From Notamacropus eugenii (Eukaryota > Chordata > Mammalia > Diprotodontia > Macropodidae): a stretch of 64,000 nucleotides of DNA. This document shows, one piece after another, positions 1 to 58,350 of the stretch; positions within the stretch are counted from its first letter, which is position 1; each line of letters opens with the position of its first letter. The notes beneath the pieces were generated by a model. It was not told the DNA's origin. It worked only from the letters and a program-made list of their open reading frames with translations, and did not search any database. The position numbers and the translations under genes were made by a program. The stretch is taken from the NCBI RefSeq assembly GCF_028372415.1, contig NC_092878.1, forward strand, positions 26,394,903 to 26,458,902, written 5' to 3'.

Positions 1-867
1 TTATCCTGTTATCTCCAAGCAGATTCAAAACCTACTTTTCTCAACTGGCTGCCAAGAACAGCAGTGTCAGTCACAACTCTGGAGCTTTGATTTGGGGTAA
101 AGGTTTGTCTCTTCTGTCTCCCACTACTTTCCCTGGTGGTTCCTTCAAGTCTTGTCTTCAAAGACTAGGAGTTTGAATAGGGCCAATTTATTTTTCCCAG
201 CATGGGAACCATCAAGATACTATTAGGAGACACCCCGTTTTCCAGAGCTAAGGCCCAGCAACTAAACTGTGCCCTGAAGTTAGCACAACAAAAATCTTTT
301 GTGCTCACCTTCTGGAATGGATGGTTCCAGAGCTCTGGCAAACACCAGCAGGCTCAGGTGTGACTTTTTGTCACTGGACAACTTTGCCTCATTGCTGCTG
401 TTTTGTCTCAGTACTGTTGCTGTGCTACACTGTTTGATTCTTTATTCACAAGCATATAAATACAGGTTGGACCAGACTAAAGTGGGTCCCCAAACCAGGG
501 GCAGGGCCCCAGCACATGTGTCTAATAAGCCTCCTTGCTTACAAGTTATTTCCCTAATTTTGGAGTTAAACTTCTGTTTGATTCCTGACTCTCCTGTCCC
601 TAGCCTGCTGTTAGGTTCTGGCCGTCCATAGGTTAGAGGCAGGTTCTGTCCCAGCCCACATATAGATCCAGCTCTATCTCTCAATAGATATCTTTTGAAA
701 CTTCCAACAAGTGAGGACTATATATGTGTGTTTTTATCTGCTATGTTCTGAGGTTGGTTAGAGATGGAGGCTGTGGGTGGTGGGGTGGTGGAGGACAGGA
801 GTAAGATGTTGTTCCTTCTGGCTCCAGTCAGTAGCCATAGTAACTAACATTACTCTCTGAATTTCAG
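1..867. other. Upstream flank of PHGR1, no coding gene seen
   Basis: No exon or convincing ORF is visible. A TATA-like box (TATAAATA) lies at 455-462. It is followed by an AATAAG-type signal near 522 and a pyrimidine-rich stretch to about 632. This layout could be a promoter for an untranslated first exon of PHGR1, or the remnant of an LTR; the sequence alone does not decide. A possible donor (GTGAGG) sits near 710, ahead of the acceptor at 866-867. Confidence 0.4.
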
Positions 868-906
868 GTGTCACTGGAATCTCTCCCTGTGTGTTGACCC
901 AGAAAG

Positions 907-3900
907 ATGAATCCAGGTAGGGAACCAGTCTGGGTAGTTGGGGAATGAAGTGAAGGATAAAAGCTAAAGAGTGGCTTGAAGTGGAATTGAGGGTTAAAGG
1001 GAGAAGAGTGAACCAATCTGCCATATTACTTAGCAACCATTCCCACAATCAGGAAGGTAAGACTTAAGCCTTAGTGACAGGAAGACATCAACTGTTGTTA
1101 ATATTACTAATGAGGTTTCCAGCCTCCTTCCTGTTTTGAGACAGCAACCCTTAAAGCGACCCTTGTAATGTGATTGTAAGAGATTTCTTCGTGGTAGGGT
1201 ACTGTGATGTGTCTGGTTTCATGTTCCCCTTTGGCTGTGTGTATTTTTTGGGAAAGTCTGCTGTACTGGGCTGCCTGGGAACTTAGGAAGAATATATGGC
1301 AGGGCTAGGTCATAAAGACAGTGACACCTGCTGGCTTTGACAATACCTAAATCCTTCCTCGTTCTCTTGACTATTCCTCTTTGTCAGAGGTCCCCAAACC
1401 CTCATCAGTCATGGAATATACATTATGTTAGCATATAGCTTTTTCTTTTGTGGACTGTTGAAGGGGAAATACAAAATAATATTAATACCTTACATTCTGA
1501 TAGCCTTTGCTGCTTTTCAATGTACTTTCATGTTTATTGTCTCATTTGACCCTCATAATAACCCCATGAAGTGGATAAGGCAGGTCTTATTATCCCCTTT
1601 TAACAGATGTAGAAATGGAAGCATCTGGAAAATGGGATGATAATGATGAGGGCTGGAAAGGGGATGGGATGGAAGAAATTCTGAAATCCCCCAAAGACCA
1701 GAGTACAGGTGCAATTCATGGGATTACGGAGTGGTTAAGGAGTGGTTAGTTCCTAGACTTTTAGTATCTGCTGCAAAGGTATTTTACCCAGAGTTCATTG
1801 GGAAATAGCCCAGGGTTGGGGGGGATGGGGAGGGTCTACATGGGAAGTATGGTTTTAGGCCTGAAACTTCACCAAATCAACTAACAGTCAGGACTGACTA
1901 AGTAATACCAGGCTGCTCTCATCAATGTCTCGTTAGACAAGATAAACGTAAAGGAGTATACATCCATCTAAGTCTAGGATGCATATGATCAGTCCGTGAG
2001 TAGTAAATGTTCTTATGGCCCAGTACACAGCCAGTTCAGTCAATACACAGCTGAGCCAAACTAATAAATTCTATAGGTACAGCTGGCTACTGTATCAGGA
2101 AGAGAGATTAAAGGTTTTGCTACAGCAGACTGTCCTTGGGCTGGGGAGAAACTGCCTGGGATAGTGTTTTAAGGCTAGGGAGAAGTGTGATTTTAGAATC
2201 GGGGTCCAAGCACAGGCACCAAAACACCCCATCAATATACCTGTAATACCTATCCCCACAGGGTTGTTATAGGGATAGGGACTGAACAAGTTATTTCATT
2301 GGTGTAGGGAACACCTGGGTGAGGGAAGGCATTCCCTCTATCAATTAGATCTGTGATTTCTTTGTAACTTGGAATCTCAGGGAATCTCCTGGGACACTGA
2401 GAGGCTAAGTTGTCTGCTAAGGTCACCCAACTTGCATCAGAGACTGGACTTGAACCCAGGTTTTTCTGTCCTCAAGGGCAGCTTTCTATCCCTTCCCCCA
2501 CTATACCACATTGCCTATATTCTCTTATTGAAATATTCCAAAAGTACTAATTAGAGGGGAGAGAATGATGGAAATACCTGGCTTAGTATCTTACTAGACT
2601 AACACCCTTTGAGTAGTTAAATAAATTTCATCCTCCCACATGCTAAGCTGTTCAGGGGCTCCGTGAGAAAAATGGCCCTCCCTTTAGCTTGGATAGAAAT
2701 GGTCTAGTATTATTATGTGTATTAAGAGCCTACAATAATCATAGTTGATTTGCAGAGCTATCACTTTGCATACATTAACTCTTTTGATTCCTACAATAAC
2801 AGGGTGGTACTACTAGTATGCCCATTTTAAAGTTGGGAAAACTGTGGCTGAGAGATTAATCCACTTTCCTGGGGTCACACAGCTAGCAAGTGCTTGAGTT
2901 CCAGAACTTTGTTAAACTGACCTTTCTATACAGCTGTTACAGGATATTTCTTTGTGGTTTTCAACCAGGTTTTCTTGACTTCAAGTCAAGAATCTCTAAT
3001 CATTACAGCATGCTGCCTCAGGATTATGTTTCTGAGTTGTACAATGGGGCTTTTAGAAAGGTGAGGGAAGAGACAATTTGTTCATTGGTCAGTCTCTCCA
3101 ACTCTGAATAGACCAAGAATTAAGACTCACAGGCAGTCCAAGGCGACAGGGAAGGGAGGAAACATTGAAGCAAGAAAAGGGGAGTTGCTCTGAGTACTGG
3201 AAAGAAGCTCCTTGCAAAGGAGAGGACAGTTTCTAGAGTTTTAAAAAGGCATAACCATTTATTAGAACTATATGGGCTGGACCCCAGTAAGACCGAGATG
3301 CTAATTAGGGATGGGAGAGCTGGAGCTTGTCTAAGGGAAGAATAAGCTCTACCTCTGCCCAGAAAGTACTGATCAATGCAAGAAACATTTATTAAGCACC
3401 TAATATTTTCAAGGCATACAAAGACAAAAACAAAACAGGAAAGATAGATAGATCGGGGCTGTGAAAAGGACCTTAGAAATCAGGTCAGACAGGGTGAGAC
3501 TGAGAAACATCTGTAGATCTTTGTAATTCAACCATGATTTTGCATCAATTATTTTTCCTAATTCCTTAGTAAAGTTTCTCATCTTGATATTGTCTCTGTA
3601 GAATGACGGTTTGTCAAAAAGGGTCCAAGGAATTATGGGAACCATTCAGCTCTTCTTAGGGTTTAGACTAAGTCTGTTGGTATTGGAACAGAGAGGTATT
3701 TGGGGAATGGGCTTTAGGATTCAGATTTGGGCATTTGGCCTTCCGAGGGCATTTTCTGATAGCCCTAAATCAAGGGAGGGTTAGGCTAATTGGGCTCCTA
3801 GTGGGTGAGTGGCTGACAGGGAAGATCAGTACTGGCACTTATACAGAGTGGTAGGCCCTAAAGAAGAGGCTGCTACTTCTCACTTGTATAAAATTATTGA

Positions 3901-6679
3901 AATAATGACCAATGTTTTTCTTTTTCCTTTTCTCACCTCCAGGTCCAAAGGTAAGAAATCCCCCCCTTCTCTTCCTAAGACTCTTTTTCCCACTTCCTTC
4001 CCCTATATCCTCCATTCCCAGTTACCTCAAGCCTCCCAGGACAGATCCCCAAGGAGTTACCCCTCAGGCTCCTCAGAATGGAAATACAGAGGGGAAGATG
4101 TATAACCTCCCCAGGATGTCTTCAGTTCTCATTCCTCTCCACCTGCCACTTCCCTGCTCAGCCTTTTCAGCAGCAATCTTCTTGGCTATTTCTCGTCTTT
4201 TCCCATCTGTTTTGCTCATTCCCTCACAATATCTTCCCCATCACCCAACCCATTCCCAGCCCCCATCTCTCTCTCTCCCGCTGTTTGCCCTCCTGTCCCA
4301 TTCTCCACTCAGTTTCCTTGGCTTCTTTTCCCTCCTCTTTGGCTGCCTCTCTTCCCTCCCCCCAACACCACTTTAAAAAGCCCAACCAGGGTTGTTCCTG
4401 ATGTAGACCTGATGAAGGCAGACCTGTGAGATTGCAATCATGCCCACCTCCCTCTCTGCTCAGCATGCCCAGGCCCTCAGCCAGCTGCTCCCTGCCAAAT
4501 ACAGAGACCTGGGAATCTGATTTTATTCCAGCATACTGCGGTGGAAGGGACAACAGATTGGGTACCAGCAGATTCAGAGGAATGGCGGGGAAAAAGCCTT
4601 GCTGTGGCCCACTCACCTCCCCCAGACCTAACCACAGTCAGTCTGGACCCCACAGTGGGAATAAAGTTAAAGGATGAAGCAGAGTGATGGTTTGAGGACT
4701 GTCCACTTGCCCCTACCCTACTTCTAGTCCTTCCATCCTGCTACCTGCAAACTGAACAGAAAAGGTGATGTCCCAAACCATAGCAAGACTGAAGCCTAAC
4801 CCCTGTTCTCTACCTGGGGAAGCCAGGCAAGGTGCTGGATAGAGCTTCTGCCTTTACTGGTCTTTACAGCAAGGAAAGAAACTCACCGGACTAGGGTATT
4901 TTATTTAATTTTTATCTTCATTGATAACTTTCTATTTTTACATTAGCTTAATTTCCAAATATAACCTACCCACCACCACCATCCCACCCCTTAAAAATAA
5001 AGAAGAAAGAAAGAGAAGAAAAGCAATTTAGCAAATTAATGAGCAATGGATAGAGTCTGACAACATAAATTGTGTTACACACCCATAGTTCCCCACCTCA
5101 GGAAAGAAAGACAGCACATTTTTTCATCTCTTCTTTGGAGCCAGGCTTAGTCATTATAATTACCAACATTTGGTTGGCTCATGAATTTTAAGGGTGGTAT
5201 TATCTAGAAGCAGGATGATTATCTTGATGACCTTTCCGGGTCCCTTCCAATCTTTCATTGCCTGTACCTACTTTTTGGTCCTCCTGACTTCTTGTGGCTT
5301 GCAAACATGGGTTACCAGGTATACACAGGACCACACTGCTCCTTACCCTAACCATTGCTCCTCTCCCTTGATTCTAGCTTCTTCATTTACCTCAACCTCT
5401 CAGGAAACTCTCTGCAGGGCCATCCCCTGGACCCAATCTGCTTTAATAAGAATTACCTGATTTATAGCCCATAACACTATCAGAACTCCAAGTACTACAT
5501 GGTAGCTACTGGTTGAAAATGGAAGGGGAAGGGGAAATAATTGTGTGTGTGTGTGTGTGTGCGTGTGTGTGTGTGTTACTGAAGAGTAAAACTGAGATTT
5601 CTCATGAGTCAAAGTCATATAGCAGATTAGAGGATAAAATGCCATCATTTTGATTCCCACCCACACAACTCCCTACATTTCCCCTTCTTGACTTCTTGGT
5701 TACTCTTAGTGTGCAGAGCCAGGGCCCTGGGTTTGCAGCCCTCTATGCCCACTACAGATTAAAGTTATGGGGCTCAAGTAACAATGAAAATGCTTGAGAG
5801 GCTGCTAGGAGATTCAATGAGCAGAGCACTGGACCTGGACTTCAGGAAGACCTCTCCAGGATTGCTATGAACATAAAACAAGATAACATTGGACAATGCT
5901 TATGTAGCAATTGTTATTATTATTCTACAAGAACAAGATTTCATTGGTCACCTCAAATTGGGCCAGGATCCCCTGATAGTGACCAGGAATGCTCTTTCTC
6001 CTTCTATATCCTCTGTTATGATGTAATTAGTGACCAAATAGACAAAGCACTGGGCCTGGAATCAGGAAGATCTGAGTTCAAATCTAGCCTCAGACATTTA
6101 CTGGCTGTTTAACCTTGTTTGTGTCAGTGTCTTCAACTATAAAATAGGGTTAATATCTCCCAAGGTTGTTGTGCAAATTAAAAGAGATAATATTTGTAAC
6201 ATGCTTAGCAAAGAGTCTGGCACATAGTAGGTACTATATAAATATCTGTTCCTTTCCCTCTATGCAAGACACTGGGATTCCTGAGATTATGATTTAGGAT
6301 TATAGGGACAGTTCATCAAATCCAACCTTTTCAGTGTACAGATAAGGAAACTGAGGTCCAGAAAGGGTAGATGACTTGGTTCCACTCACATAGGGGAGTA
6401 AGGGATGAGTTTGAGTTCTAACTGTGTCTCTTTGGCTTCTTACAGGGACACGGCCCCCCTGGAGGACATCCACCTGGCCACGGGCCTGGGCATGGACCTG
6501 GGCATGGACCTGGGCATGGGCCTGGGCATGGGCCTGGACCTGGGCATGGGCCTGGGCATGGGCATGACAAACACCCACCTGGTCCTGGAGGGCCCCACCC
6601 TGGAAATCACCCACCTGGAAAGTACCACCCTGGTCCTGGAGGGCCTCCTCCAGGAAGACCTCATGGCCCACCTCACTAA
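907..6679 (+). CDS. PHGR1: PHGR1, proline/histidine/glycine-rich protein 1 (three coding exons)
   Basis: The coding sequence is built from 907-916 (ATG AAT CCA G, then donor gtaggg), 3943-3950 (8-nt micro-exon between a CTCCAG acceptor and a gtaag donor) and 6446-6679 (ending TAA). The phases fit exactly and give 83 residues starting MNPGPKGHGPPGGHPPGHG. From memory, human PHGR1 starts MDPGPKGH and is of similar length. The protein is almost only Gly, Pro and His: a run of HGPG repeats (about residues 17-45), then a less regular tail with KHPPGPGG, NHPPGKYH and a final HGPPH. There is no signal peptide, membrane segment or folded domain. Exon 2 of the mRNA probably begins at 868 after a TTTCAG acceptor, so an untranslated exon should lie further upstream. 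Known biology: the human gene is expressed in gut epithelium and its molecular role is unclear. The position beside DISP2 supports orthology. The long Met/Leu/Gly ORF over the last exon is an out-of-frame shadow. Confidence 0.88.
917..3942 (+). other. PHGR1: PHGR1 intron before the micro-exon
   Basis: About 3 kb bounded by a gtaggg donor and a CTCCAG acceptor. It holds old repeat debris: MIR/L2-like sequence at about 1480-1640, a minus-strand SINE-like piece at about 2375-2520, and a minus-strand MIR at about 2700-2890. No other coding exon is visible. Confidence 0.7.
3943..3950 (+). CDS. PHGR1: PHGR1 8-nt coding micro-exon
   Basis: GTCCAAAG sits between a polypyrimidine tract ending CTCCAG and a consensus donor GTAAGA. 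It joins the G ending at 916 and the GGACAC beginning at 6446 to read Gly-Pro-Lys-Gly-His in one frame. It supplies residues 4 (part) to 6, matching the PGPK motif of the human protein. Confidence 0.85.
5540..5576 (+). repeat. (GT)n microsatellite
   Basis: Alternating GT with one GC interruption, directly readable. Confidence 0.95.
6030..6252 (+). repeat. tRNA-derived core-SINE (MAR1/MON1 type)
   Basis: Shows the typical order: 'gacaaagcactgggcctgga', 'cagg(a)aga.ctgagttcaaat', 'cagacatttactggctg', then a tail ending 'gcacatagtaggtactatata'. A second, 5'-only piece of a similar SINE is at about 5815-5857. Confidence 0.75.
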
Positions 6680-6747
6680 GGAAGCAATGCAAAGAGGCAG
6701 GAAGACCAAGGAACTACTTTTGGCAGTATCACCAATCTATTCTGTTT

Positions 6748-6753
6748 AATAAA
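6748..6753 (+). terminator. PHGR1: PHGR1 polyadenylation signal
   Basis: AATAAA lies 69 nt after the stop codon, with a GT-rich/T-rich stretch following. This gives a very short 3' UTR. Confidence 0.7.
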
Positions 6754-10953: not shown

Positions 10954-13900
10954 ATGGAGAGCCGAGACAGCAGCGGCCCTAGCCAGGGTTCGGGCCCCGG
11001 CTCCGCATCCACCCCTGGCCCCAGGGAGGAGCAGACTCCAGAGGGACAGCACCTAGCCCCAGACAGCAGTCACCTAGACAGGTAAGGCAAACCGTGACCC
11101 AACCCAACCTCCCATGTCTTCATGAAATCTTTCCCACAATCTGGACAGCCGCCGGCAGTCTTCATACATTCTCTTCACCCTCCCCGTTGCCATGGCCCCC
11201 TTTTATAGTTCCCCGTCATCACTTCCACACGCTCCTCCAAGCCATCCCTCATTACTCCTGCATGTCTTTCCCCAATCTCAACATTCCTCCCTGCCCCCAC
11301 CTCTAGTCCTGTCCATCTTCCTTATCCCCCACTCTGTGGCGCTGACCTATCTACTTCATTCCCGACTCCTAACCCTTCTCTGGTCCTCCAGTTCCAGCCT
11401 ACCTCTTCCCATCTCTGTCACTCCCAGCTCTTTATACCTTGCCCTGCATCTCCTCAGAAAACACATCCATCCTCTGTGACCATCTGTCAGGGGATGAGCT
11501 TCTGAGTCTCTGCTTTCGTGATTGTGTAGAGAAGTGTATGCATGTGAATGTAACACTGGGGTGTGCCTTTGGGTCCTCATCTATGAATGTCTGATTATTT
11601 GCCTTTGTTCATCATTTTGACAAGTTGTATGTCCATGTGTGCACCTGTGAGTTTAAGTCTCTGCCCCACCCATGGCAGTCACATACACAAAGTTGAGCCC
11701 AGGTAGGCAGACTTAGGATCTCAGAACTATACCTGGCACTACTGGAAAGAATCACTGCTCTGGAAATGAGCCCAGTGTTCACAGCACAGAGAAACAAATT
11801 TACAACTTGCTTTGATGATTAAAGCCAACTGTGCAACAATTCCCCACACATCTGATTATTTCTTGTGCATATGACTAGAGCTTCCTAAAGGCAGTGTGGA
11901 CAGCAATATATACCATATAATTATGGTCCCCTGAAGGGTCTTACTCTTTTCTCCCCAGATATCTCCCTCTGCCATGGTACTGCCCTCCTTTCCAACATGA
12001 GAAGAAATTAGACTCACTCCTTTGCTCTGGACATCAAATGTAGGGGCTTTGTTTCTAGAAGGCCACTGTTAAATCACACATCTGTTACCAATGAAGGGGG
12101 CAGGGAGAGAAGGCAGGAGTAGGAAGAGAAGAGACTTGGTAGACTATTATTACATTTTTTTCTGGATTAGTTTATTATGTTATAAAAGTGTTGTCTTCAA
12201 AGGCATAAAAATCCTGTCCTTGAGAGAATGAATAAAAAGCCATCCAATAAACACTATATTTGAACCTGCACTATATGAAAGACACTCTACTAAGCACCAT
12301 AGGAAGTACAAAGATGAATAAGGTGATCTCTTCCTTCATGACAGTTCAGCAAGAAGGAAAAACATATTAAACAAAAGCTATAACACAAACTAGCTTGTGA
12401 AAATGTAGTAAGAAAAATGTACAGTGGTAAAGGCATTCAGAAAAAGGAAAAAGAAACGCAGAACAAGTAACTAAGTTTCAGCGATAAGGGAAAGAACCTC
12501 CACCTCTCCCCCAAGAACATTGAAAAGAAGTGGTCAGGAATATGGTTTTAACAGAAGCCAATCACAAGACCATCTGATCTTACACAAGACAAATTGCTAT
12601 TGTTGTGCAGCCATTCCAGTCATGTCCGACTCTTCATGACCCCTTTTGGGGGGTTTTCTTGGCAAAAATACTGGAGTCATTTTGTCATTTCCTTCTCCAG
12701 TTCATTTGACACATGAGGAACTAAGGCAAACAGGGTTAAATGGCTTGCCCAGGGTCACACAGCTAATAAGTATATGAGACTGGATTTGAACTCAGGAAAA
12801 TGAGTCTTCCTGACCTCAGGCCCTGAATTCTATCCACTGTGCCACCAAACTGCTCCAAGACAGAAGTGAAGAGGCGATTATTGGCAGTACGTAAAAACCC
12901 ACATTTCACTCTATTTCACTACAGGGTCTTTAAAAGTAGCTTCTCGTGCATTTATTATTATTCAACTTAAGGGGAAAATAAAATATTTTTACATATTTTG
13001 GTTCCATCAAGTTTGGTTCTATCCAGTGCTTAGCACAATGCCTGGCACATAGTAGATGCTTAATAAATAGTGACTGACTGAGCAAGTAAAAGATACCTGC
13101 AAATCCATCATTCCCCATCTAAACAAGTAATGGAAAGAGTGATGGACTTGAAGTTAGGAAAACAATGACTGTTAATCCCTTTGGCTTCTGGGCTGAAGTC
13201 TGTGTGTGTATATAGTATTTCCTCCCCCATTCTTCAGCCTGCTGGATCTATCCAAGATAGGCAGGCAAAGCCAGGAAGTTAATCATCACAATCAGCCTTA
13301 GGGCTTCTTTCCGGGGAATTCAGAGGACTAGAGGAGATCATACTTCTGAGGGTGAAGAGGCTAGAATAGTTAATTCTTATAATTACTGGATCAGGTCAAA
13401 TGATTTGTGGGAGTGGGAGCTAGGAAAGAGAACAGTTTTGGATTGAGAAAGATTTTTCTTTATAAAGGGTGGAATTTGACTCTTTTAACATGGGAAAGCA
13501 GAGGAAGAACAGAAGGCTTGGCTCTGCTACCTGTAGAAGATGGATGGGTTCTCAAATTCTGCCAGATTTGGGAGTATTAGATACATCCAGGAGCTGGGGT
13601 TTCTGGAGAAGAGAAAATGGAGCACTAACTTCCCCCCTCCTCAATCCCCTATCAGGGATCAAAATAAATGGAAGAAGTTAGGAATGTCAAAATGGGAGAA
13701 AGAGATACTTTTTGAAGTTGAGATCTAGGTAAAACCCAACAGAAAAAGAACAAAAGAGATTTCTTTAAAAAGGGTGGGACCAGGTGGGTTACTTATTAGT
13801 GATTATTAAGGTGAACTAAACATAAAGTTGGGACTTATCTCCTTCTCATATGGATGCTTGGACTCTGGGAGTGGGGTTCTCTGCTTCTTTCTAGGTACTA

Positions 13901-16900
13901 AAATGGAAACAATAACCCTGGTTTTTGTGGAACTGAACCTGAAGCCCAAACTAGGGGCCTGATCCCCAGATAGAGTCAAACTCAAGAGCTCTAAGGCTTG
14001 AGTAGAAATCCTTTAGGGATCACTCTCCATTTTTTCTTCTACCTGCTTCCTACTAGTGATATCATGCATCCTTTTCAAGAATGAAGGGCGAACAATAGCT
14101 ATTCCCTATGTGCCAGTCAGATTTCGGATCTTAAAGAAGATGGTTGTCTTCTACCAGTTTGGGAAGGAGAGGAAAGGGTTCTGCACTCCAACTTCTCCCC
14201 ACAAGAACAGAACTTATCTCCAAGTTTTCTGTGGCCAACAATGTTGGTCTTTTCACCAGAAATATAAAAATAAGTTCATCTTTTATTTTCTGTCTGTTTA
14301 TTTGGTATTTGCACGAGAACATGGCCTCTCCACATGCTGCCTCCTTCCTTTTCTCGTTTTCCCCATCTCTTCTCCCATCCCATTCTAACCAGAACCCTGA
14401 CTCAGTCTCTCCAGTACAACAGCAGTGTTGGCTATGGAATAAGAACCAGAGCAAGCTCATTCAAGGGCTCTGGCCACCCCACAGGGCAGGGAGGCCTCCC
14501 AGCAGTGCCCAGTCTGCGATCCCGCCAATCAGAGTATATCAAGCTTGTCTCTAAATGTTGATAAGTTCTGCTCCTGCCTGGTGAGTAGGGGCTGTCTCCA
14601 AGCAGTTTCTAGCACAGTTCTGCACATGGCAGTAAAAACTGACATTTGCTGATGGTACTTCTACTGAACCTCCCTGAATCCACTCAGTTTAATGAATTTA
14701 TTGGACCAGACCTGTGATTTCATTTGTATAGGAAACTATTAGTGAGGAAAATCTCTTTGCTAATGCTAATGGGCATTGGTTCTGCAATATATATTTATAT
14801 ATTTAGGAGGAAGCCTGGAGGCACTAAGTGATTAGTCCAGGATCACAATCCTTGTATATATCAGAAATGGAACTTGAACCCAGGTCTTTTGATTCTGAGA
14901 TCAGCTTTCAGGTTCATCATTCAGATTCTCCACTCAATTTAATTTAATTCAATTCAATTCAACAAATTGCCCTATTCTCCGGACAATGTACTAAAAGGAA
15001 TATGAGGGCAACAATGAAACTATTCCTACCCTCAAGGAGCTTATAGTCTGCTAAGGAGACACATTGTGTGTACACAGAATGATTATAAGAGGCAGAGATA
15101 ACTAGTATCCTTGGAGGAGGGAGGGAGTGGTTAAGAAAATATTCTTTTTAGATATGGCTCCTAAACTATGCCTTAAAGGAAAGTAGAAATTCTAAGAATC
15201 TGAGGCAAGAAGGGAAAGTTTTCCAGACAAGGAAGATGAACTTTGCATAAGCAGGAGGTGGAAGATGGAATGTCCTGCATTGAAAGCAGCTTATAGGCCA
15301 ATTTGTTTGGAACAGAGAGTGGGTAAATAAATGAATGAATGAAATTAGACTGGAAAGCCAAGCAAAAGCCAGATTATGGTGAGCTTTAAATGCTACCTTG
15401 AGGATATTATTTGTCCTACAGGAAAATATGGTGCCACAGACAATTCTTGAGCATGATGTGGTCAAATATATGTTTTAGTAATATAATTTCAAAGAATTAA
15501 AAATCGAACCCAGGACATCCAAGCTGTCTAACCCATAATAAAACAAATCCTTTGCCTAGATAGCAAAAGAGTAGGGTATGAAAGTTGAATACAGAGACAC
15601 CAGAGCCTCTTACCTGCTACCACTCCATATTATCCACCTTCCATATGGCACAGTGACTAGCTGTCCAAAGGAACTCTGAGATTCTAGACCTAGCACAAGG
15701 TGGTGGCCCCTGTTTCCCCAACACTGCTGTGGTTGTAGGAGCACATTCCTGGCCCTGGGATGGCCTCATTGACTCCTGTCTCTTCCCTCTCATCCTGATT
15801 GTTTTTTGTTTTCTCTCTCCAAACAGTTCCCAGACTGAGGTCCCTGTGCCTGATCCAAGCCAGGAGAGAAGATGCCCTCTCCACCGATGCCCAGTTACCA
15901 CACCTCTCATCTCTTCAGGCCCATTACCAGTTTCAAGTACCCTCCAACCACAGGGTCAGAACTTGTCCAGTCCCTCAGGTCCTCCCCAATTCCCTTATCC
16001 CCGGACCCAGCAGGAGTTCCGAGGTGGCTACACCTTGCCTGGGCCTGGGGACAGAACTGCCCTATGTTCCCACCACTCCAGCCTCAGCCCTTCTCCTGTC
16101 CCCTCACAGAGGGATAGCTCCTGGAAGCCCAGACCTGTGCAGCACCACGTGGTAAGCGTCAGGTAAGGAGTGAGATTAGAGTGGGGTGGGGTAGGGAAAC
16201 AGAGAATAAAATAGCCTACCCTCTGTCCATGGGATTAAACTAGAGATTGAGAGCCCAGGTCTCAGAACTCCTGGATATAGGAGTTCCAGGGGTACAAGGA
16301 TGCTGGGGATAGGGTTCTAGACTGGAGAACACACAGGCTTGAATGCAGCTAGAAAAAAATTTAGGACCTGGACGGGGAGATCTGGTAATGCAATGAAAGG
16401 GTTAATGCCATGCTTCCCATTGCACTGAAAGAAATAACTCTCCAATTAGCTATTTTTCTTATCTGCAGGCATGAGCAGGCTTTTCGGATGCCAAGGAGGT
16501 AGGAACTGCGTTTTCCTTTATCCTTTCATATCTGTCATCATGTTCTCCCTGCCACTTTCTTGGCCACAGCTTTCCTTATGACAGTATTTCCCAAGTTATG
16601 GCTCACATTGACAAAACATGTGAGGGCAGAGTTTTATAATGAATATTTTGGCTAGCTATCCACAGGTAGGGGATAAATGTTTCTGAAAATCAGCTTCAAG
16701 GCCAAAGAATCACTTCTGCTGTTTTTTCATGGAGGAGGTGGAGTGCATATATGGCCCATATGTGCCACAGGAAGGGAGATAAGTGGTGTCTCTTGCCCTG
16801 ATGGAAACTGACCCATGAACACCAAAGAGACTAGAGAGTGAGAGTAGCCTGTGGTTTGGCACAGTCCCCTTCAGGGCAGAAGGAGAGCCTTCTACTGGGC

Positions 16901-19900
16901 TGGTAGGATGAATGGTCATTGAAGTACTTGCTAGCATTGAAATGTTCTCATGGAATCCCTAGTCACATGGTTGCATGGAACACACTTTGGGAAATTCATT
17001 AAAGTAACGTAACCAGGAAATGCCTTCAGTCCTGTCCCCTGAGGAACTCTTCTCTGCTGTGTCCCAGAGTACCAGTGGGTACTGAACTCTCACTCATGCC
17101 CTGGCTCCCCTCCCTTCCAGCTACTCCCAGCTGATTGCTGAGTGGCCCCTGGCTGTGCTGCTGGTGTGCCTGGCCACTGTCTTGCTCTGTACAATAGCTG
17201 GGCTGCTGGGGGGACAGATGCCTGACTTCTCCGAGCCCTTACTGGTAAGTGACAGAGGGACAAGGAGGGAAAGGCAGAGGTCCCAGCTCTATTTCCCGCA
17301 AGATAGAGTGAGATGGGATGGAGTCAGCTGTGGGGAACTGGTACCTGGGTAAGAAGCTGGGCTTTGAAGCATCAGAGAGAATGGACAAAAGTTAGAGAGA
17401 AAGGGAAACATTCAGAATAAAAAGAGATTGTTACTTAGAGATCAAGTGATCCAGGTGGGCTTCATCTCTTTTGGTCTCTGCATTAGGGGAGCAGGGATCC
17501 AGAGAATGGGCAATAGGAGACAGATTGGTGACTTGTGGAACTAGGAAGGAAAGGGGAAAAAAGGGGAGTCCTAGTTGGAGAATTTATCCCCACACTCCAT
17601 TAATCCTGCCCTCACTGCAGGGCTTTGAGCCTCGGGACACCGACATCGGGCGAAAACTGGCCGTCTGGAGAATCGTGCAGGAACTCACTGGGCACAAGAA
17701 GGTGTTCTCATTAACCCCTGACCCTGACCTGAATAGGTATGAGCCATGGCATGGGGAGGGTGGGATATCCATGTCCCTGTAAGACTACATGCCTACCATG
17801 GTCACACACATGCGCACACACACACACAGCGTCAGGTAACTTCTCAAAGAACAGCAGTACCCTTTTGGGTCCTCTGGGTCCACATATCTTTTGGATCCAC
17901 TGAGGGAACTTTGATCACATAGCCCAGCTGACCTGTTTCCTTTGCCCCTCTCCTTGAGTTAACTATCAATAAGTTAAGCCTTTACTTGTTACCTGGACTT
18001 GCTGGTGACTTCCCTGTTATGGGAACTTTCTCTCTCTACCTCAGTTCTGACAGCTCTATTACTATGAGCCCCTTGGATTGGGGCAGTGCCCAGGAAGGGT
18101 TGGCCCGGCCTCGTAGGATGGTGGAGCCCTGGGAGAACAGAGGACAGGATGGCTTCTTCTGTGGCCCCCCAGGTGAGTGGCATCTTGGCCAACCCCTCCC
18201 TACCTTGGTGTAATCCACCCAGCTCCTTCCTCTGCTTGGACACTCATTATTTCTAAGCTTGTGGCTAGAGCTGTTTCCCATCCTACTATTAGAGGTCCAA
18301 CGATGTGCTCACTTTTTATTTTCTGCCCAATCAACTTGGTATCTAGAAAGAACACAGCCTCCTCATGTGCTCCCTACTTCCTTCCTTCCTCTCCCATCCC
18401 CCACACCCTAGCTCAGGTTCCCCTTCTCTGCAACAGAATATTTTTGCCCCCCCCCCCCCGAACTTTGGCAATAACAGGATGGGGCAGATGAAAGCTAGGC
18501 ATGAGGAATATGATTAAGGTTTTAATGAAACAAAAGGAAAAAACAAGAGGAGGATTGTTAGGTACCATAAGGTAAACCTTGGGTCAAGTTCATCAGGATT
18601 ATCTGAGGTAAAGAAGAAGAGAAAGGTTTCAAAACAAGGGGTCAATGATGTCCAGGAAAGTTAGTCAGCAGGGATCAGAAACATAATTCAAGAGACAAGG
18701 GAACTTAAGATCAAGGGACCCAGGCTAACAGCCTGAGTAGCAAAGGATCAGAAGCACAGGTTGAAGAGACAGGACAGGATGGAGGCAAGAGAAATAGGGC
18801 CTCAGCAGCAAAAATGGAGCTTATGGTACCAAGCCAACTGCCTTCTGAGGAAAAGAGTCCTGGAGTATATTTTTAAAAATCTGGGGCCAGTGCTATTTGT
18901 GAAATTGTTGAATTGTTTGGCTCTAGCAAGGCTGCTTTCTGTTCCCCTGGGCCAGCTCCCTATCCTATGGACATAGGACCCAGTTAAAGGGTTGGGAACT
19001 AGACGAATGAGCATTGAGGCATGCCAAAAAGGGATAAGACCCCAAGAATCTCATCTTAAGGACAAGTATAGAATGATCTGTCCCTGAGTTGACAGGGACT
19101 CTATAACCCCCAGTAACAATCTGATTCCCATTTGAGAGGCAATTGGGTCAGCCTTAGTTTCTCTTTAAGGAAAACCCCAAGTCCTATCTTACCTGAGACT
19201 AGAAGGGTAACAAGAGGACACTAAGAATCAGAACTGATCTTGACCCCTTACTGCTTTATCCTGCAAGCCTGGACTAATCTTGGCCCTTTTTTTGTGCCTT
19301 ACTTTCCCTACTTATCACACACACAGATAGGGATGATTCAGCCTCCCATGGGGGTGTTAGGGTCCCAAATGGGGTCCTGAGGGGACCATAAGACTGAAGA
19401 GTTAAGTTCTTGGAGTTTGTGTTGCAGAGAAGAGTTACTCGCAGTTGGTGTTCATGTCCACCACAGCAGGCAGTCTGTGGAATCTGCAAGCCATTCAGTC
19501 CATGTGTCGAATCGAGCAGGAAAAGGTGAGCCATGTGGGTGTGTGGGGAAGGGCTGGTATGAAGAGGAAGCAAAAGTGGGGAGGATTGGATAGGGTAATA
19601 GATGGCCAGTTTGGGAAAGAAAAAGTCCCAGGAGGCAGTTGACCCTATTCTAAATGTGAAATCTCATGGAAATTACAAAGCGATGACCTTACTCCTGGCA
19701 TTCTCCTTGCCCTCACCCTCTATCCCTCCCACCCTTGACTGGGTCTGTCTGCTTCCCTCCACCCCCCTACCATTCCACTGTCCCCAAATAAATGGCCAAA
19801 AGAGTGACCCATTGTTATTCACTGGGTTCTTCAAAGTGTCCTTGATAACTTCCATTCCTCAAAGGGACAGGCTTCTTTTCTAAGATAGAAGCCAGGTGTG

Positions 19901-22900
19901 TCACTTGGTGAATTAACATTAGGTGGGAGCTGAGGGTATTGGTCCCAGTCTCCCCAGCCTCCTTCTCTGTAGCTTTCTGGAAAGCAAGGGGATGTATCTA
20001 ATCCTTGGGCTTCCCCACCAGAGCCATTTGAGCTTCCTGAGACCTTGTACTGCTGTCCCTCTGCAGATCCGCTCCCATGCCCATTTCAGGGACCTATGTC
20101 AGCGCACCTCAGCCAACGAGTGCTGCCCCAGCTGGTCCCTAGGCAACTACATCGCCGTGCTCTATAACCGCTCCTCATGCCTGGACATCACCCAGGGGGA
20201 CATTGTCCGTACGCTGGCTCTTCTACGGGCCTGTGCCCCATATTACCACCGTGGTGCCCTGGTGCCAGCCTGCTTGGGTACCCAACGGGAAAAGCACCCA
20301 CTCTGTACCCACGTGCCTGAAAAGTGTGCCCGAGTCAGTGCCATCTACCAGCTCCTGCACTTCCTGGTTGATCGGGATTTCCTGAGTCCCCAGACTGCTG
20401 ACTACCAGGTGCCCTCCCTCAAGTATAGTCTTCTCTTCTTGCCTACCAAGAAGGGGGCCTCCATGATGGGCATCTACCTGGACAATCTGGCCTCCTCCTG
20501 GGAACTCTTAGACAACTATACTTCCATCACAGGAATGGACCTAGGCCTCAAGCAACAGCTGTTCCAGCACTACCTAGCCCGGGACACAGTGTACCCTGTG
20601 CTGGCTCTTGGTGCCATCTTTCTCAGTATCTCCCTGTACCTCCGCTCCCTCTTTATCACCCTGATGGTATTACTGGTGGTGGTAGGATCCCTGCTAGTTG
20701 CCTTCTTCCTGTACCAGGTGGCTTTCCGCTTGGCCTATTTTCCCTTTGTCAATCTGACTGCTATTGTCTTGCTCAGCAGCATCTGTGCCAATCACACCCT
20801 GGTCTTCTTTGACCTCTGGAACCTCAGCAAGAGCCAGCTTCCCTCCTCTGGGCTCCCCCAAAGGGTCAGCCATACCATGCACCATTTTGGCTACTTGCTC
20901 TTGGTCTCTGGTCTCACCACAGGCACAGCATTCTATGCCAGCTACTTGAGTCACTTAACTGCCATTCGATGCTTTGCCATCTATATGGGCACTGCTGTGC
21001 TGGTCAATCTGGCCCTCATGTTCACATGGTTGCCCTCCTCCATGGTGCTGTATGAGCGTTACCTAGCCCCTACCTGTGCAGATCGGCCCCGAGGTTACTG
21101 GGGTGGCAGTAGACACCGGAGGGTAGCCTTGGCCCTGCAGCGGCAGCTTCACACCCTGCAGCGGGCCCTAACGGGGACCTCCCATCTGCTGTTCCAGCGG
21201 CTGCTGCCTTGTAGTGTCATTAAGTTTCGTTACATCTGGATCTGCTGGTTTGCCGCACTGGCAGCAGGAGGGGCCTATATTGCTGGCTTCAGTCCACGGC
21301 TACGGCTTCCTACTCTGACAATGCCCAGGGGACAAGTCTTCCGCCCTAGCCACCCCTTCGAGCGTTTCGATGCTGAATACCGCCAACAATTCATGTTTGA
21401 ACGCCTGCCTCAGGGAGAGGGTGGGCACATGCCCGTGGCAATGGTGTGGGGCATCCTCCCTGTAGACACAGGTGATCCCTTGGATCCCCGCAGCAATGGC
21501 ACTCTGGTGAGTGATCCAACTTTCTCCGCCCGTGGTCCTCAGGCCCAGCGTTGGCTACTGACACTTTGTCACCGAGCTCGCAATCAGAGCTTCTACTATG
21601 TGGATCAGGAGGGGGAGCCCACGCTCTGTTTTGTGGAGGAGCTGCAGCGGTGGATGGCTGGCCATCGGTGTGCCTACCATGGCCCTGGTCTCTGTTGTGG
21701 CCATTTCCACTTCCCCTTTGGTCCCCAGCTCTTCCTGCATTGTCTCAAGATGATGGCCCTGGAACAAAGCCCTGATGGAGGCAGGGACTTGGGGCCTCGG
21801 TTCGATGCCGAGGGCAATCTGGTGGCCCTGGTTTTGCAGTTTCAGACTAATTTCCACTATAGTGTGGATTACAGCCAAACCCACCGCTTCTACCTTGAAG
21901 TGAGCCGCTGGCTCGAGGGAGAGCTGAGCACAGCCCCTGGTGGCCTGCGCAATGGTTGGTTCACCAGCCGCCTGGACCTCTACAGTCTCCAGCACAGCCT
22001 GAGCACAGAGCCCGTGGTGGTCCTGGGCCTGGCCGTCGCCCTGTCTTTTGCCATTCTCCTGCTGGGCACCTGGAATGTGCTGCTCAGTCTGTTTTCTGTG
22101 ACAGCCATTGCCGGCACCGTGATGCTGACTCTGGGGCTGCTAGTGCTTCTGGAGTGGCAGCTCAATGCCGCCGAGTCTCTCTTCCTTTCAGCCGCCGTGG
22201 GCCTTTCTGTGGACTTCACCGTGAACTACTGCATCTCCTATCACCTCTGCCCCCGCCCAGACCGGCTCAGCCGAGTGGCGTTCTCCCTACGCCAGATGAG
22301 CTGTGCCACTGCTGTCGGAGCCTCTGCCCTCTTTGCTGCAGGCGTGCTCATGCTACCTGCCACCGTCTTGCTCTACCGCAAGCTGGGCATCTTCCTCATG
22401 ATGGTCAAGTGCCTCAGCTGTGGCTTTGCCAGCTTCTTCTTCCAGTCCCTCTGCTGTTTCTTTGGGCCTGAGAAGAACTGTGGCCAGATCCTCTGGCCCT
22501 GTGGCCGCCTGCCCCGGGACTATGGAGTCCATGAACCTGGTAAGGAGAAGACTGCCCGCCACCGCCCAGGTCCTGCTGGGGTCTCTTCAGCTGCCTTCAT
22601 AGAACAGTATGAGCTCCAGCCCCTCGCCCGTCGCCGCAGCAACAGTTTTGACACCAGCACAGCCACCAGCAAGCTGTCTCATCGTCCCTCCATGCTGTCG
22701 GAAGATCTGCAGCTCCACGAAAGTCATTGCTATCCCCGGGCCCCTCCGCCACCTGTCCACCAGGAAACTCTGAGGCCTGAACCCCAGGAGCCACTTTTGG
22801 ACCACCAAGTTGTCTTTAGTCAGTGCCCAGCTTTACAGACTTCCTCCCCTTATAAGGAGAGTAGCCCAGCCCCCAAGGTCTGGGCTGGAAAGGATTCCCA

Positions 22901-23351
22901 GAGTTTGGATGCTAGGACTCCACAGTCCACAAGCCAGCCTGTCACGTCTACTCATTCCTCCAAGGCTGAGGCAAAGGAGCCCCCTCCTTGCCTCTGCTCC
23001 TCAGCCAGCTCTCTGGAGGGACTCAGTGTCTCAGACGAGACCTGCCTCAGCGCCTCAGAGCCCAGTGCCCCAGTTCCTGATTCAATCGTCTCCTCCCCAG
23101 AAGCTCAAGATGTGGCTAGGTCTCCCACTCCAGAAAGGGGTCAGCTAAATGGAAAACGTGAGACTCTCTGGCTGGCCCTGCGGCAAACAGTCTATGCCTC
23201 ATCCTCCCCTGCTTCCCACCAGAGCAGCTCTTCCTGGAAGAGCCGTGCTGGCGTTGGGGGCAGCCCTGTTGTGCTGCCCAATAGCCAGCCCAATTTACCT
23301 GATGTGTGGCTCCGCAGATCTAGCACCCAAAATTCTGGTTATAGCAGCTGA
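10954..23351 (+). CDS. DISP2: DISP2, Dispatched-family RND transporter-like protein 2 (eight coding exons, 1414 residues)
   Basis: Coding exons: 10954-11081, 15827-16162, 16469-16498, 17121-17244, 17621-17736, 18045-18172, 19428-19525 and 20067-23351. All have GT/AG borders and the phases add up to 1414 residues; human DISP2 is about 1400. Exons 1-2 encode a disordered Ser/Pro-rich cytoplasmic N-terminus starting MESRDSSGPSQGSG. Exon 4 carries the first membrane span (about residues 174-194). Exons 5-7 begin the first extracellular loop with FEPRDTDIG and RPRRMVEPWE, which match human DISP2. The last exon encodes the remaining 11 spans. The family is the Patched/Dispatched branch of RND proteins; DISP1 releases lipid-modified Hedgehog, whereas DISP2 is mainly neural with an unsettled role. 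The ATG was chosen because it opens the first exon and matches the human N-terminus in style. An apparent longer ORF beginning at 19923 merely runs back into intron 7. Confidence 0.95.
11082..15826 (+). other. DISP2: DISP2 intron 1
   Basis: The longest DISP2 intron, 4.7 kb. It contains an L2-like tract (about 12245-12400), a full minus-strand SINE (12592-12858), MIR/SINE debris (about 14800-14930) and L2-like sequence (about 14960-15110). No additional exon with good borders is seen. Confidence 0.65.
12592..12858 (-). repeat. Full tRNA-derived SINE, antisense
   Basis: Antisense signature in order: 'tcatgtccgactcttcatga', 'ttttcttggcaaaaatactg', 'cccagggtcacacagctaat', 'tctatccactgtgccacc'. 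Confidence 0.85.
18447..18460 (+). repeat. Poly-C tract in DISP2 intron 6
   Basis: A run of about 14 C residues, directly visible. Confidence 0.9.
20067..23351 (+). CDS. DISP2: DISP2 giant last coding exon (residues 321-1414)
   Basis: Starts with IRSHAHFRDLCQR after a CTCTGCAG acceptor and ends SGYSS-stop. It holds a cysteine-rich first luminal loop with N-glycosylation sequons such as NRSS and NYTS. A sterol-sensing-type block of five spans follows (about residues 495-648), then span 7 (about 708-728), the second large loop, and spans 8-12 starting near residue 970. Span 10 has the family motif GLSVDFT, with Asp at residue 1036. Span 4 reads CANHT (560-564) where other RND relatives have an acidic pair. 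After about residue 1125 comes a cytoplasmic Ser/Pro-rich tail with the conserved YELQPLARRRS and LSHRPSMLSEDLQLH blocks. A single exon carrying three quarters of the protein is the known DISP2 arrangement. Confidence 0.95.
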   Translation: MRSHAHFRDLCQRTSANECCPSWSLGNYIAVLYNRSSCLDITQGDIVRTLALLRACAPYYHRGALVPACLGTQREKHPLCTHVPEKCARVSAIYQLLHFLVDRDFLSPQTADYQVPSLKYSLLFLPTKKGASMMGIYLDNLASSWELLDNYTSITGMDLGLKQQLFQHYLARDTVYPVLALGAIFLSISLYLRSLFITLMVLLVVVGSLLVAFFLYQVAFRLAYFPFVNLTAIVLLSSICANHTLVFFDLWNLSKSQLPSSGLPQRVSHTMHHFGYLLLVSGLTTGTAFYASYLSHLTAIRCFAIYMGTAVLVNLALMFTWLPSSMVLYERYLAPTCADRPRGYWGGSRHRRVALALQRQLHTLQRALTGTSHLLFQRLLPCSVIKFRYIWICWFAALAAGGAYIAGFSPRLRLPTLTMPRGQVFRPSHPFERFDAEYRQQFMFERLPQGEGGHMPVAMVWGILPVDTGDPLDPRSNGTLVSDPTFSARGPQAQRWLLTLCHRARNQSFYYVDQEGEPTLCFVEELQRWMAGHRCAYHGPGLCCGHFHFPFGPQLFLHCLKMMALEQSPDGGRDLGPRFDAEGNLVALVLQFQTNFHYSVDYSQTHRFYLEVSRWLEGELSTAPGGLRNGWFTSRLDLYSLQHSLSTEPVVVLGLAVALSFAILLLGTWNVLLSLFSVTAIAGTVMLTLGLLVLLEWQLNAAESLFLSAAVGLSVDFTVNYCISYHLCPRPDRLSRVAFSLRQMSCATAVGASALFAAGVLMLPATVLLYRKLGIFLMMVKCLSCGFASFFFQSLCCFFGPEKNCGQILWPCGRLPRDYGVHEPGKEKTARHRPGPAGVSSAAFIEQYELQPLARRRSNSFDTSTATSKLSHRPSMLSEDLQLHESHCYPRAPPPPVHQETLRPEPQEPLLDHQVVFSQCPALQTSSPYKESSPAPKVWAGKDSQSLDARTPQSTSQPVTSTHSSKAEAKEPPPCLCSSASSLEGLSVSDETCLSASEPSAPVPDSIVSSPEAQDVARSPTPERGQLNGKRETLWLALRQTVYASSSPASHQSSSSWKSRAGVGGSPVVLPNSQPNLPDVWLRRSSTQNSGYSS

Positions 23352-57129: not shown

Positions 57130-58350
57130 AATCCCATTTCAGGTCGCCATTTTGTCCTTCTCTTGGCTTCCATATCCATGTCGTCCTCCTTCACCTGCCG
57201 CGAATCTCAGACTGACACGCCCCCAGGCCCGGACTGCGAAGTGGGGAGCAGCGCTTTTTCCTTGGGATTGTGGCTGGGGAAGAAGGAGGGGCAGAGGGCG
57301 GCTCCCCGTGGGGATGGCGATGGTGAGAGTAGGCCGCCGCCCACTGTGGTCACTTCGGGACTTCGGGGGAGGAGGCCCAGCCCCTGGGGACTCGCTGCTG
57401 ATTGGCTCGAAGGGAAGCTCCGGCTGGGGGAGGGGGTCGTTCAGAGCGGCTGGACGCTGATAGGCTGCAGGGGACCCCACCCCCTCCCTGATTGGACAGA
57501 GGCAGAGACGCTCGCGATTGGCGGAGTTGCTGGGGGAAGCCCAGGTCAAAAGGCTGAAGTGCTGCTCGGGAGCAGCGATGGCGACGGCAGCTCGTCTGGC
57601 CTGTGCGCGTCTGCCCGGGTGGAGAGGGCGTCTGGCCGCGCTCTCCGCCTCGCGGCCGGGCTATTCGACGATGCCTGTGGATGACACGATAAATGGGCTG
57701 AGCGAAGAGCAAAGACAGGTAGCGGAAGTGCTTCCCCGCCCCTGGCCGAGGGGTCCCCCCGCGGGGTCCGTATGGGCGGCCGCTAGCCTCGCGCCGTGCC
57801 CGGGCCTCCCCTCTCACCGCCCTCCGCTGCCCCGGGCCCAGGCCCAGCCTCAGCTTCTCGAGTGCCGGCGGCCCGAGGTAGACGGACCAGCGCCGGCCTC
57901 CCCTTCCCTCGCCCAGGGGAACGACCCCTGCGGAGCCTCGGGACCCCCGGGAGCCGGGCGCCGGGGAACCGGGGCTCCGGGGACTGCCGAGCCGGGCGCC
58001 GGGGAACCGGGGCTCCGGGGACTGCCGAGCCGGGCGCCGGGGAACCGGGGCTCCGGGGACTGCCGAGCCGGGCTCCGGGGAACCGGGGCTCCGGGGACTG
58101 CCGAGCCGGGCTCCGGGGAACCGGGGCTCCGGGGACTGCCGAGCCGGGCGCCGGGGAACCGGGGCTCCGGGGACTGCCGAGCCGGGCGCCGGGGAACCGG
58201 GGCTCCGGGGACTGCCGAGCCGGGCGCCGGGGAACCGGGGCTCCGGGGACTGCCGAGCACGCAGTAGCCGGGCCCGGCGCTGTCGGGCGTCTTTAGAGGG
58301 ACTTCCACCGGGACTTTGCCCAGGACACTTGCAGTCCGGGCCAGCGTTTG
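57130..58350. promoter_or_regulatory. IVD: CpG-island promoter of IVD
   Basis: GC-rich, CpG-dense, TATA-less. Inverted CCAAT boxes (ATTGG) lie at 57401-57405, 57491-57495 and 57517-57521, the last about 57 nt before the ATG. A YY1-like CGCCATTTTG is at about 57145. Fits a housekeeping promoter driven by NF-Y. The island continues over exon 1 into the minisatellite of intron 1. Confidence 0.65.

What the first reader, a model, noticed from the sequence alone, without database searches (positions are those of the whole stretch)
907..6679. PHGR1 uses an 8-nt coding micro-exon that restores the exact conserved N-terminus
Neither the 10-nt start piece (907-916) nor the 8-nt piece (3943-3950) would be found by ORF or standard exon prediction. 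Yet with the last exon they give MNPGPKGHG..., matching the human start MDPGPKGH, with perfect donors, acceptors and phase. Standard annotation may miss this gene or mis-start it in the out-of-frame Met/Leu/Gly ORF at 6405-6749.
Basis: partly seen in the sequence, partly recalled or inferred. Interest (0 to 1): 0.75.

Follow-up and report, generated by a model that had tools for sequence, protein, structure and literature searches.

The report
Eight-letter coding exon in marsupial PHGR1
A small gut protein gene in a marsupial genome seems to carry one coding exon only eight bases long, needed to join its start to its body in the right reading frame; it looks real and probably inherited, but it belongs to a known kind of tiny exon.

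Summary
ATGAATCCAG (907-916), GTCCAAAG (3943-3950) and the exon at 6446-6679 join through GT-AG introns into an 83-residue protein, MNPGPKGHG...PPH. With a recalled-consensus splice score, the 8-nt exon ranks first of 13,469 possible 3-30 nt micro-exons on both strands of the window (16.2, next 11.8). The runner-up is a real DISP2 micro-exon, a useful positive control. Of 1000 shuffles of the intron, 1 reaches its score and 26 offer any 8-nt exon coding Gly-Pro-Lys. The last exon has no in-frame ATG, and skipping the 8 nt gives a 43-residue frameshift. Identity as PHGR1 rests on DISP2 and IVD downstream, composition, and Lys6-Gly7 as published for human (PMC5803922). The three cysteines of placental PHGR1 are absent. 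Human PHGR1 has four exons, so the structure is probably inherited; I saw no human exon sizes. No RNA evidence was available, exon 1 was not identified, and the annotation claim could not be tested. Verdict: real, a new member of a known kind (micro-exon not divisible by three, probably constitutive).

The parts
868..916 (+). Exon 2 (predicted): 39 nt of 5' UTR plus the first 10 coding bases ATGAATCCAG; start codon 907-909; in-frame TGA at 895-897
   Evidence: Acceptor ...gaatttcag|GTG with a CTAAC branch-point match beginning 24 nt before the intron end, donor CAG|GTAGGG; 907 is the only ATG of the exon
917..3942 (+). Intron 2, 3,026 nt, phase 1
   Evidence: GT...AG, sequence
3943..3950 (+). 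8-nt coding micro-exon GTCCAAAG: completes Gly4, then Pro5 and Lys6
   Evidence: Top micro-exon pair of the window, score 16.22, rank 1 of 13,469; shuffles; frame
3951..6445 (+). Intron 3, 2,495 nt, phase 0
   Evidence: GTAAGA...TTCTTACAG with a CTAAC branch-point match beginning 28 nt before the intron end
6446..6679 (+). Last coding exon (exon 4): residues 7-83, Pro/His/Gly-rich, 12-nt repeat array 6473-6566; TAA 6677-6679
   Evidence: Sequence, tandem repeats
6748..6753 (+). AATAAA poly(A) signal, 68 nt after the stop codon
10954..23348 (+). DISP2, downstream, same strand (neighbour marker)
   Evidence: tblastn with Sarcophilus DISP2 (P0003), 7 stretches, 76-96% identity; the 1142-aa open frame 19923-23348 found DISP2 proteins in the database
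57572..57733 (+). IVD, first coding stretch, further downstream (neighbour marker; approximate)
   Evidence: Residues 37-90 of the frame 57464-58264 match isovaleryl-CoA dehydrogenase 9jq4, E 5.5e-7

Best explanation
This is the marsupial orthologue of PHGR1, a gut-epithelium protein, and its coding sequence is spread over three exons with 10, 8 and 234 coding bases (stop included). The 8-nt exon is probably spliced in constitutively because both its splice sites are very strong: a 20-nt pyrimidine run (3915-3934) followed by one A and CCTCCAG, and an AAG|GTAAGA donor. It supplies Gly4-Pro5-Lys6 and sets the frame, so that the start codon at 907 reads into the Pro/His/Gly frame of the last exon, which has no ATG of its own. 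Shown: the sequence, sites, frame, rank against chance and the neighbouring genes. Inferred: inclusion in mRNA, constitutive use, and common descent with the four-exon human gene.
For: Sites and frame. Splice-score rank 1 of 13,469 pairs; micro acceptor 7th of 9,680 AG and donor 21st of 6,294 GT. The same ranking put a genuine 30-nt DISP2 exon second: 16469-16498 reads HEQAFRMPR, where Sarcophilus DISP2 has HEQTFQMPR. 1 of 1000 shuffles reach the score; 26 of 1000 hold any GPK 8-mer exon. No in-frame ATG in 6422-6679; in-frame TGA 895-897; 907 is the only ATG of exon 2. ATG NNN CCN G|GT occurs only at 907 in the 13.9 kb searched. Four of four differences among seven in-register 12-nt repeat units are synonymous in the PHG frame and none in the other two. 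DISP2 and IVD lie downstream. Human PHGR1: four exons, 82 aa, Lys at residue 6, Gly at +1 (PMC5803922 passages). Constitutive micro-exons have stronger splice sites (PMC4317164, PMC7821500 passages).
Against: No RNA reads. No other mammalian genome could be searched, so conservation of the exon is not shown directly. Exon 1 was not identified. The three cysteines present in all six placental orthologues aligned in PMC5803922 are absent, and there are 3 Lys instead of one. The introns of 3.0 and 2.5 kb are not obviously short, whereas constitutive micro-exons tend to have short ones. In HeLa reporters with shortened introns only MPC1, not the other four similar micro-exons, was constitutively spliced (PMC9929638 passages). 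The seven repeat units were chosen after looking; with three overlapping shifted units the PHG frame had 5 of 10 synonymous differences, no better than one of the other frames. The splice matrices were recalled, not trained.
Confidence: 0.92

Rival explanations
1. Recursive splicing: AG|GT at 3942/3943 is only a stepping stone, so the 8 nt are removed again and the mRNA joins 916 to 6446.
For: AG is followed directly by GT.
Against: The rebuilt donor CAG|GTCCAA scores -4.2 against 6.8 for AAG|GTAAGA 8 nt on, and the product would be a 43-residue Trp/Ala-rich frameshift.
Confidence: 0.02
2. The micro-exon is an alternative cassette: some transcripts skip it and make the frameshifted peptide.
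For: Very short exons tend to be skipped (PMC4317164 passages); in reporters four of five similar micro-exons were not constitutive (PMC9929638 passages). The skip stop at 6565-6567 lies in the last exon, so nonsense-mediated decay would not be expected (inference).
Against: Both sites are among the strongest in the window. Included micro-exon clusters have the strongest sites (PMC7821500 passages), and the endogenous transcripts of five human genes with coding micro-exons of 4-7 bp showed no skipping in the cell lines tested (PMC9929638 section 7).
Confidence: 0.06
3. The gene is translated from a different 5' exon or from the out-of-frame ATG at 6405, and the 8-nt exon is a chance match.
For: An ATG-started frame of 114 aa exists at 6405-6749. 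Five other short start-donor pairs of the right phase exist in the 13.9 kb scanned, and strong donors lie further upstream.
Against: The 6405 ATG lies in intron sequence before a good acceptor (39th of 9,680); differences among the seven in-register repeat units are nonsynonymous in that frame, 4 of 4; chance tests; the only start of the form ATG NNN CCN G|GT in 13.9 kb is 907.
Confidence: 0.03

Closest known systems
Human PHGR1 (NM_001145643, 15q15.1; PMC5803922)
   Same: Pro/His/Gly-rich, 82 against 83 aa, Lys at residue 6 followed by Gly, Gly/Pro/His repeats; the four-exon gene fits exons 2-4 found here plus an unseen exon 1
   Different: The marsupial protein has no Cys (three are shared by six placental orthologues), 3 Lys, N instead of D at residue 2 (D is recalled), and 4-residue GHGP repeats where the paper describes repeats of about 11 residues
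Coding micro-exons not divisible by three: MPC1 (4 bp), TNNI1 (4), KSR1 (5), TMEM237 (5), MUSK (7) (PMC9929638)
   Same: Under 10 nt, coding, frame-shifting if skipped
   Different: Those are shown in mRNA by RT-PCR; here inclusion is predicted. MPC1 inclusion was mapped to 67 nt upstream plus 6 nt downstream; not tested here
Neuronal micro-exon programme (SRRM4, RBFOX, PTBP1)
   Same: Very small exon
   Different: Those are mostly in frame with weaker sites (PMC7821500 passages); this one has strong sites and lies in a gut gene, with no TGC between pyrimidine tract and AG (sequence; the TGC motif is recalled)

Membership tests
PHGR1 | Extreme Pro/His/Gly content (human 29/18/31%) | tested here: met
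   33.7/19.3/36.1%
PHGR1 | Lys at residue 6 followed by Gly | tested here: met
   MNPGPKG; human from PMC5803922 passages
PHGR1 | Position next to DISP2 and IVD (human order recalled; 15q15.1 from PMC5803922) | tested here: met
   DISP2 and IVD found downstream; KNSTRN, recalled as lying between them, was not identified
PHGR1 | Three cysteines, present in all six placental orthologues aligned by the paper (an observed trait, not a definition) | tested here: not met
   0 Cys
PHGR1 | Single lysine | tested here: not met
   3 Lys
PHGR1 | Four exons, about 434-nt mRNA | tested here: inconclusive
   Three exons placed; exon 1 not identified
PHGR1 | Expression in gut epithelium | not testable with these tools
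   no RNA data
Constitutive micro-exon not divisible by three | 30 nt or less, not a multiple of 3, coding | tested here: met
   8 nt; coding by frame inference
Constitutive micro-exon not divisible by three | Strong canonical splice sites with pyrimidine tract | tested here: met
   rank 1 of 13,469 pairs
Constitutive micro-exon not divisible by three | Short flanking introns | tested here: inconclusive
   3,026 and 2,495 nt; no distribution compared
Constitutive micro-exon not divisible by three | Near-complete inclusion in mRNA | not testable with these tools
   no RNA data

The most novel reading that the evidence does not exclude
The 8-nt exon is kept as a unit because it delivers the lysine (K6, in Gly-Pro-Lys-Gly) proposed in PMC5803922 as the site of PHGR1's covalent modification. 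Inclusion then sets both frame and modification, and skipping would switch to a Trp/Ala-rich peptide from an mRNA that escapes nonsense-mediated decay.
Probability: 0.07. Interest if true: 0.55.

Novelty: new member of a known kind. Interest (0 to 1): 0.38.

Why it matters
Coding exons under 12 nt that are not multiples of three are few: 77% of human micro-exons under 12 bp are multiples of three (PMC9929638 section 7). RNA-seq aligners lose sensitivity below 8-10 nt (PMC7821500 passages), and in plants such exons are often missing from annotation (PMC8831610 passages). For PHGR1, a candidate gene in diverticular disease (PMC11148476 passages), missing 8 nt destroys the protein model, so orthologue searches and marsupial annotations could lose the gene. 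The in-frame TGA just before the start codon also argues against an N-terminal extension in this species, in line with the paper's choice of the 82-aa human frame.

Tried and rejected
DISP2 as a control found 518 proteins, the best being Sarcophilus DISP2 at 94%, so the database does hold mammals. Local controls: phmmer scored relatives made by random substitution (no gaps) at E up to 1 in 100 of 100 at each of 5, 10, 15, 20, 25 and 30% and 93 of 100 at 40%. Since human PHGR1, which exists in public records (PMC5803922), was not returned either, I draw no conclusion about marsupial annotation.

Spliced-copy (retrogene) search of the own genome: not answered in 16 tries. Exon 1: donors in window 1-840 are middling at best (4.04 at 710, 3.91 at 357); stronger donors lie in the 10 kb upstream (for example 7.5 at -2561 and 6.85 at -7595), but nothing tells which, if any, belongs to this gene. 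A TATAAATA at 455-462 is only a candidate promoter. Pfam: no family for the protein at E up to 0.001. Papers: PHGR1 with microexon, with micro-exon and with marsupial gave 0 papers each, and the string MDPGPKG 0 papers; supplements could not be read, and the library holds open-licence papers only.

Full report
What is in the sequence. The window is a stretch of a 3.45-Gb genome (G000:C24:26394903-26458902), very probably a marsupial: its DISP2 is 94-95% identical over the large exon to Sarcophilus harrisii DISP2. The three pieces named in the finding are where it says: ATGAATCCAG at 907-916 followed by gtaggg, GTCCAAAG at 3943-3950 between ...cacctccag and gtaaga, and GGACACGGC... from 6446 after ...cttcttacag, with TAA at 6677-6679. 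Spliced, they give 83 residues, MNPGPKGHGPPGG...RPHGPPH. The first intron is phase 1, the second phase 0, and the micro-exon provides the last two bases of Gly4, all of Pro5 and all of Lys6.

Is it more than chance? I scored all AG...GT pairs 3-30 nt apart on both strands of the 64-kb window with one donor and one acceptor matrix (recalled consensus frequencies, so relative ranks only). The 8-nt exon came first of 13,469 pairs with 16.22; the next was 11.82. That next pair, 16469-16498, lies between two DISP2 exons and translates to HEQAFRMPR. It fills the gap (residues 154-159) between the tblastn matches of Sarcophilus DISP2, which reads HEQTFQMPR there; of four DISP2 proteins looked at, three show a like stretch and the fourth, an echidna protein, does not show it in the part printed. 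The scoring knew neither gene, so this is a positive control. In 1000 dinucleotide shuffles of 917-6445, 1 reached the observed score and 26 contained any 8-nt exon able to code Gly-Pro-Lys. The spurious-match formula of MicroExonator (PMC7821500 passages) gives 3.3e-4 for this exact 8-mer and 0.010 for all codings of GPK. Of the 18 8-nt AG...GT pieces in the stretch, only this one gives GPK.

Why the gene needs it. The Pro/His/Gly frame of the last exon is open only from 6422 and holds no ATG (one near-cognate CTG at 6422 lies in the intron), so its start must come from upstream. ATG907 is the only ATG in exon 2 and has an in-frame TGA four codons before it. In 13.9 kb (10 kb upstream, L009, plus window 1-3942) ATG NNN CCN G|GT occurs only there; a looser scan for short open starts ending in G|GTRRG gave 907 and five other start-donor pairs whose residues do not resemble M-x-P-G. 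Joining 916 straight to 6446 gives 43 residues, MNPGTRPPWRTS..., ending in the last exon. Among seven in-register copies of the 12-nt repeat, 4 of 4 differences from the consensus are synonymous in the PHG frame and 0 of 4 in each of the other two. When three shifted overlapping copies were counted too, it was 5 of 10 in the PHG frame, 0 of 10 and 5 of 10 in the others, so this is mild support only.

Which gene. Downstream on the same strand come DISP2 (seven stretches, 10954-23348) and IVD (about 57.6 kb). I recall the human order at 15q15 as PHGR1, DISP2, KNSTRN, IVD; the paper confirms 15q15.1 only, and I did not identify KNSTRN here. Human PHGR1 has four exons, a 434-nt mRNA and an 82-aa frame judged best conserved over a 93-aa alternative; its only trypsin site is residue 6, a lysine with Gly after it (PMC5803922: passages, section 23). 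The window protein keeps that lysine and glycine. It lacks all cysteines, although three are present in the six placental orthologues aligned there, and it has three lysines. PHGR1 is listed among proteins whose compositionally ordered sections usually differ between human and mouse (PMC3836704, one passage), so a diverged body is not surprising. I call it the PHGR1 orthologue by position, N-terminus and composition, with two placental traits not met.

How it probably works. The acceptor has a 20-nt pyrimidine run (3915-3934), one A, then CCTCCAG, with a branch-point-like TGAC beginning 37 nt before the intron end; the donor is AAG|GTAAGA. Constitutive micro-exons are marked by strong sites (PMC4317164 and PMC7821500 passages). 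Five human genes with coding micro-exons of 4-7 bp that are not multiples of three showed no skipping in the cell lines tested (PMC9929638 section 7), and for MPC1 67 nt upstream plus 6 nt downstream were enough; in HeLa reporters, however, the other four were not constitutively spliced (same paper, passages). By analogy I infer constitutive inclusion. Recursive splicing is unlikely, because the rebuilt donor CAG|GTCCAA scores -4.2.

What remains open. No RNA was available. Exon 1 was not identified: donors in window 1-840 are middling, and stronger ones further upstream cannot be assigned. Conservation in other mammals could not be tested directly, because I had no other mammalian genome to search. 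The retrogene search did not complete 16 times. The protein database returned no mammalian PHGR1, including human, so the claim that annotation misses the gene stays untested. The four-exon human gene suggests that the micro-exon is already in human records; I saw no exon sizes.

Verdict. The finding holds on sequence evidence: an 8-nt coding micro-exon, most likely constitutive and inherited, in marsupial PHGR1. It is rare and instructive for annotation, but of a known kind.

Noticed in passing
16469-16498: A 30-nt DISP2 micro-exon (HEQAFRMPR...), second-best micro-exon score of the window, matched by DISP2 proteins of other mammals (three of four looked at).
   Followed up: yes
4101-4400: The intron after the micro-exon is pyrimidine-rich on the + strand (73-79% C+T per 100 nt); possible binding region for pyrimidine-tract proteins, not tested.
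   Followed up: no
455-620: TATAAATA at 455-462 followed by sequence that reminded me of a retroviral LTR (impression only); could be the PHGR1 promoter. Copy number was not searched.
   Followed up: no
6045-6250: A stretch resembling a marsupial SINE (recalled, no search) lies about 200 nt before the last exon.
   Followed up: no
57787-58474: Long Pro/Gly/Ser/Arg open frames on both strands with visibly repeated peptide units, just after the first IVD coding stretch.
   Followed up: no
G000 whole genome: The mistyped 14-mer ATGAACCCAGGTCC occurs 241 times against 16 for its reversed control, as if it lies in an interspersed repeat.
   Followed up: no
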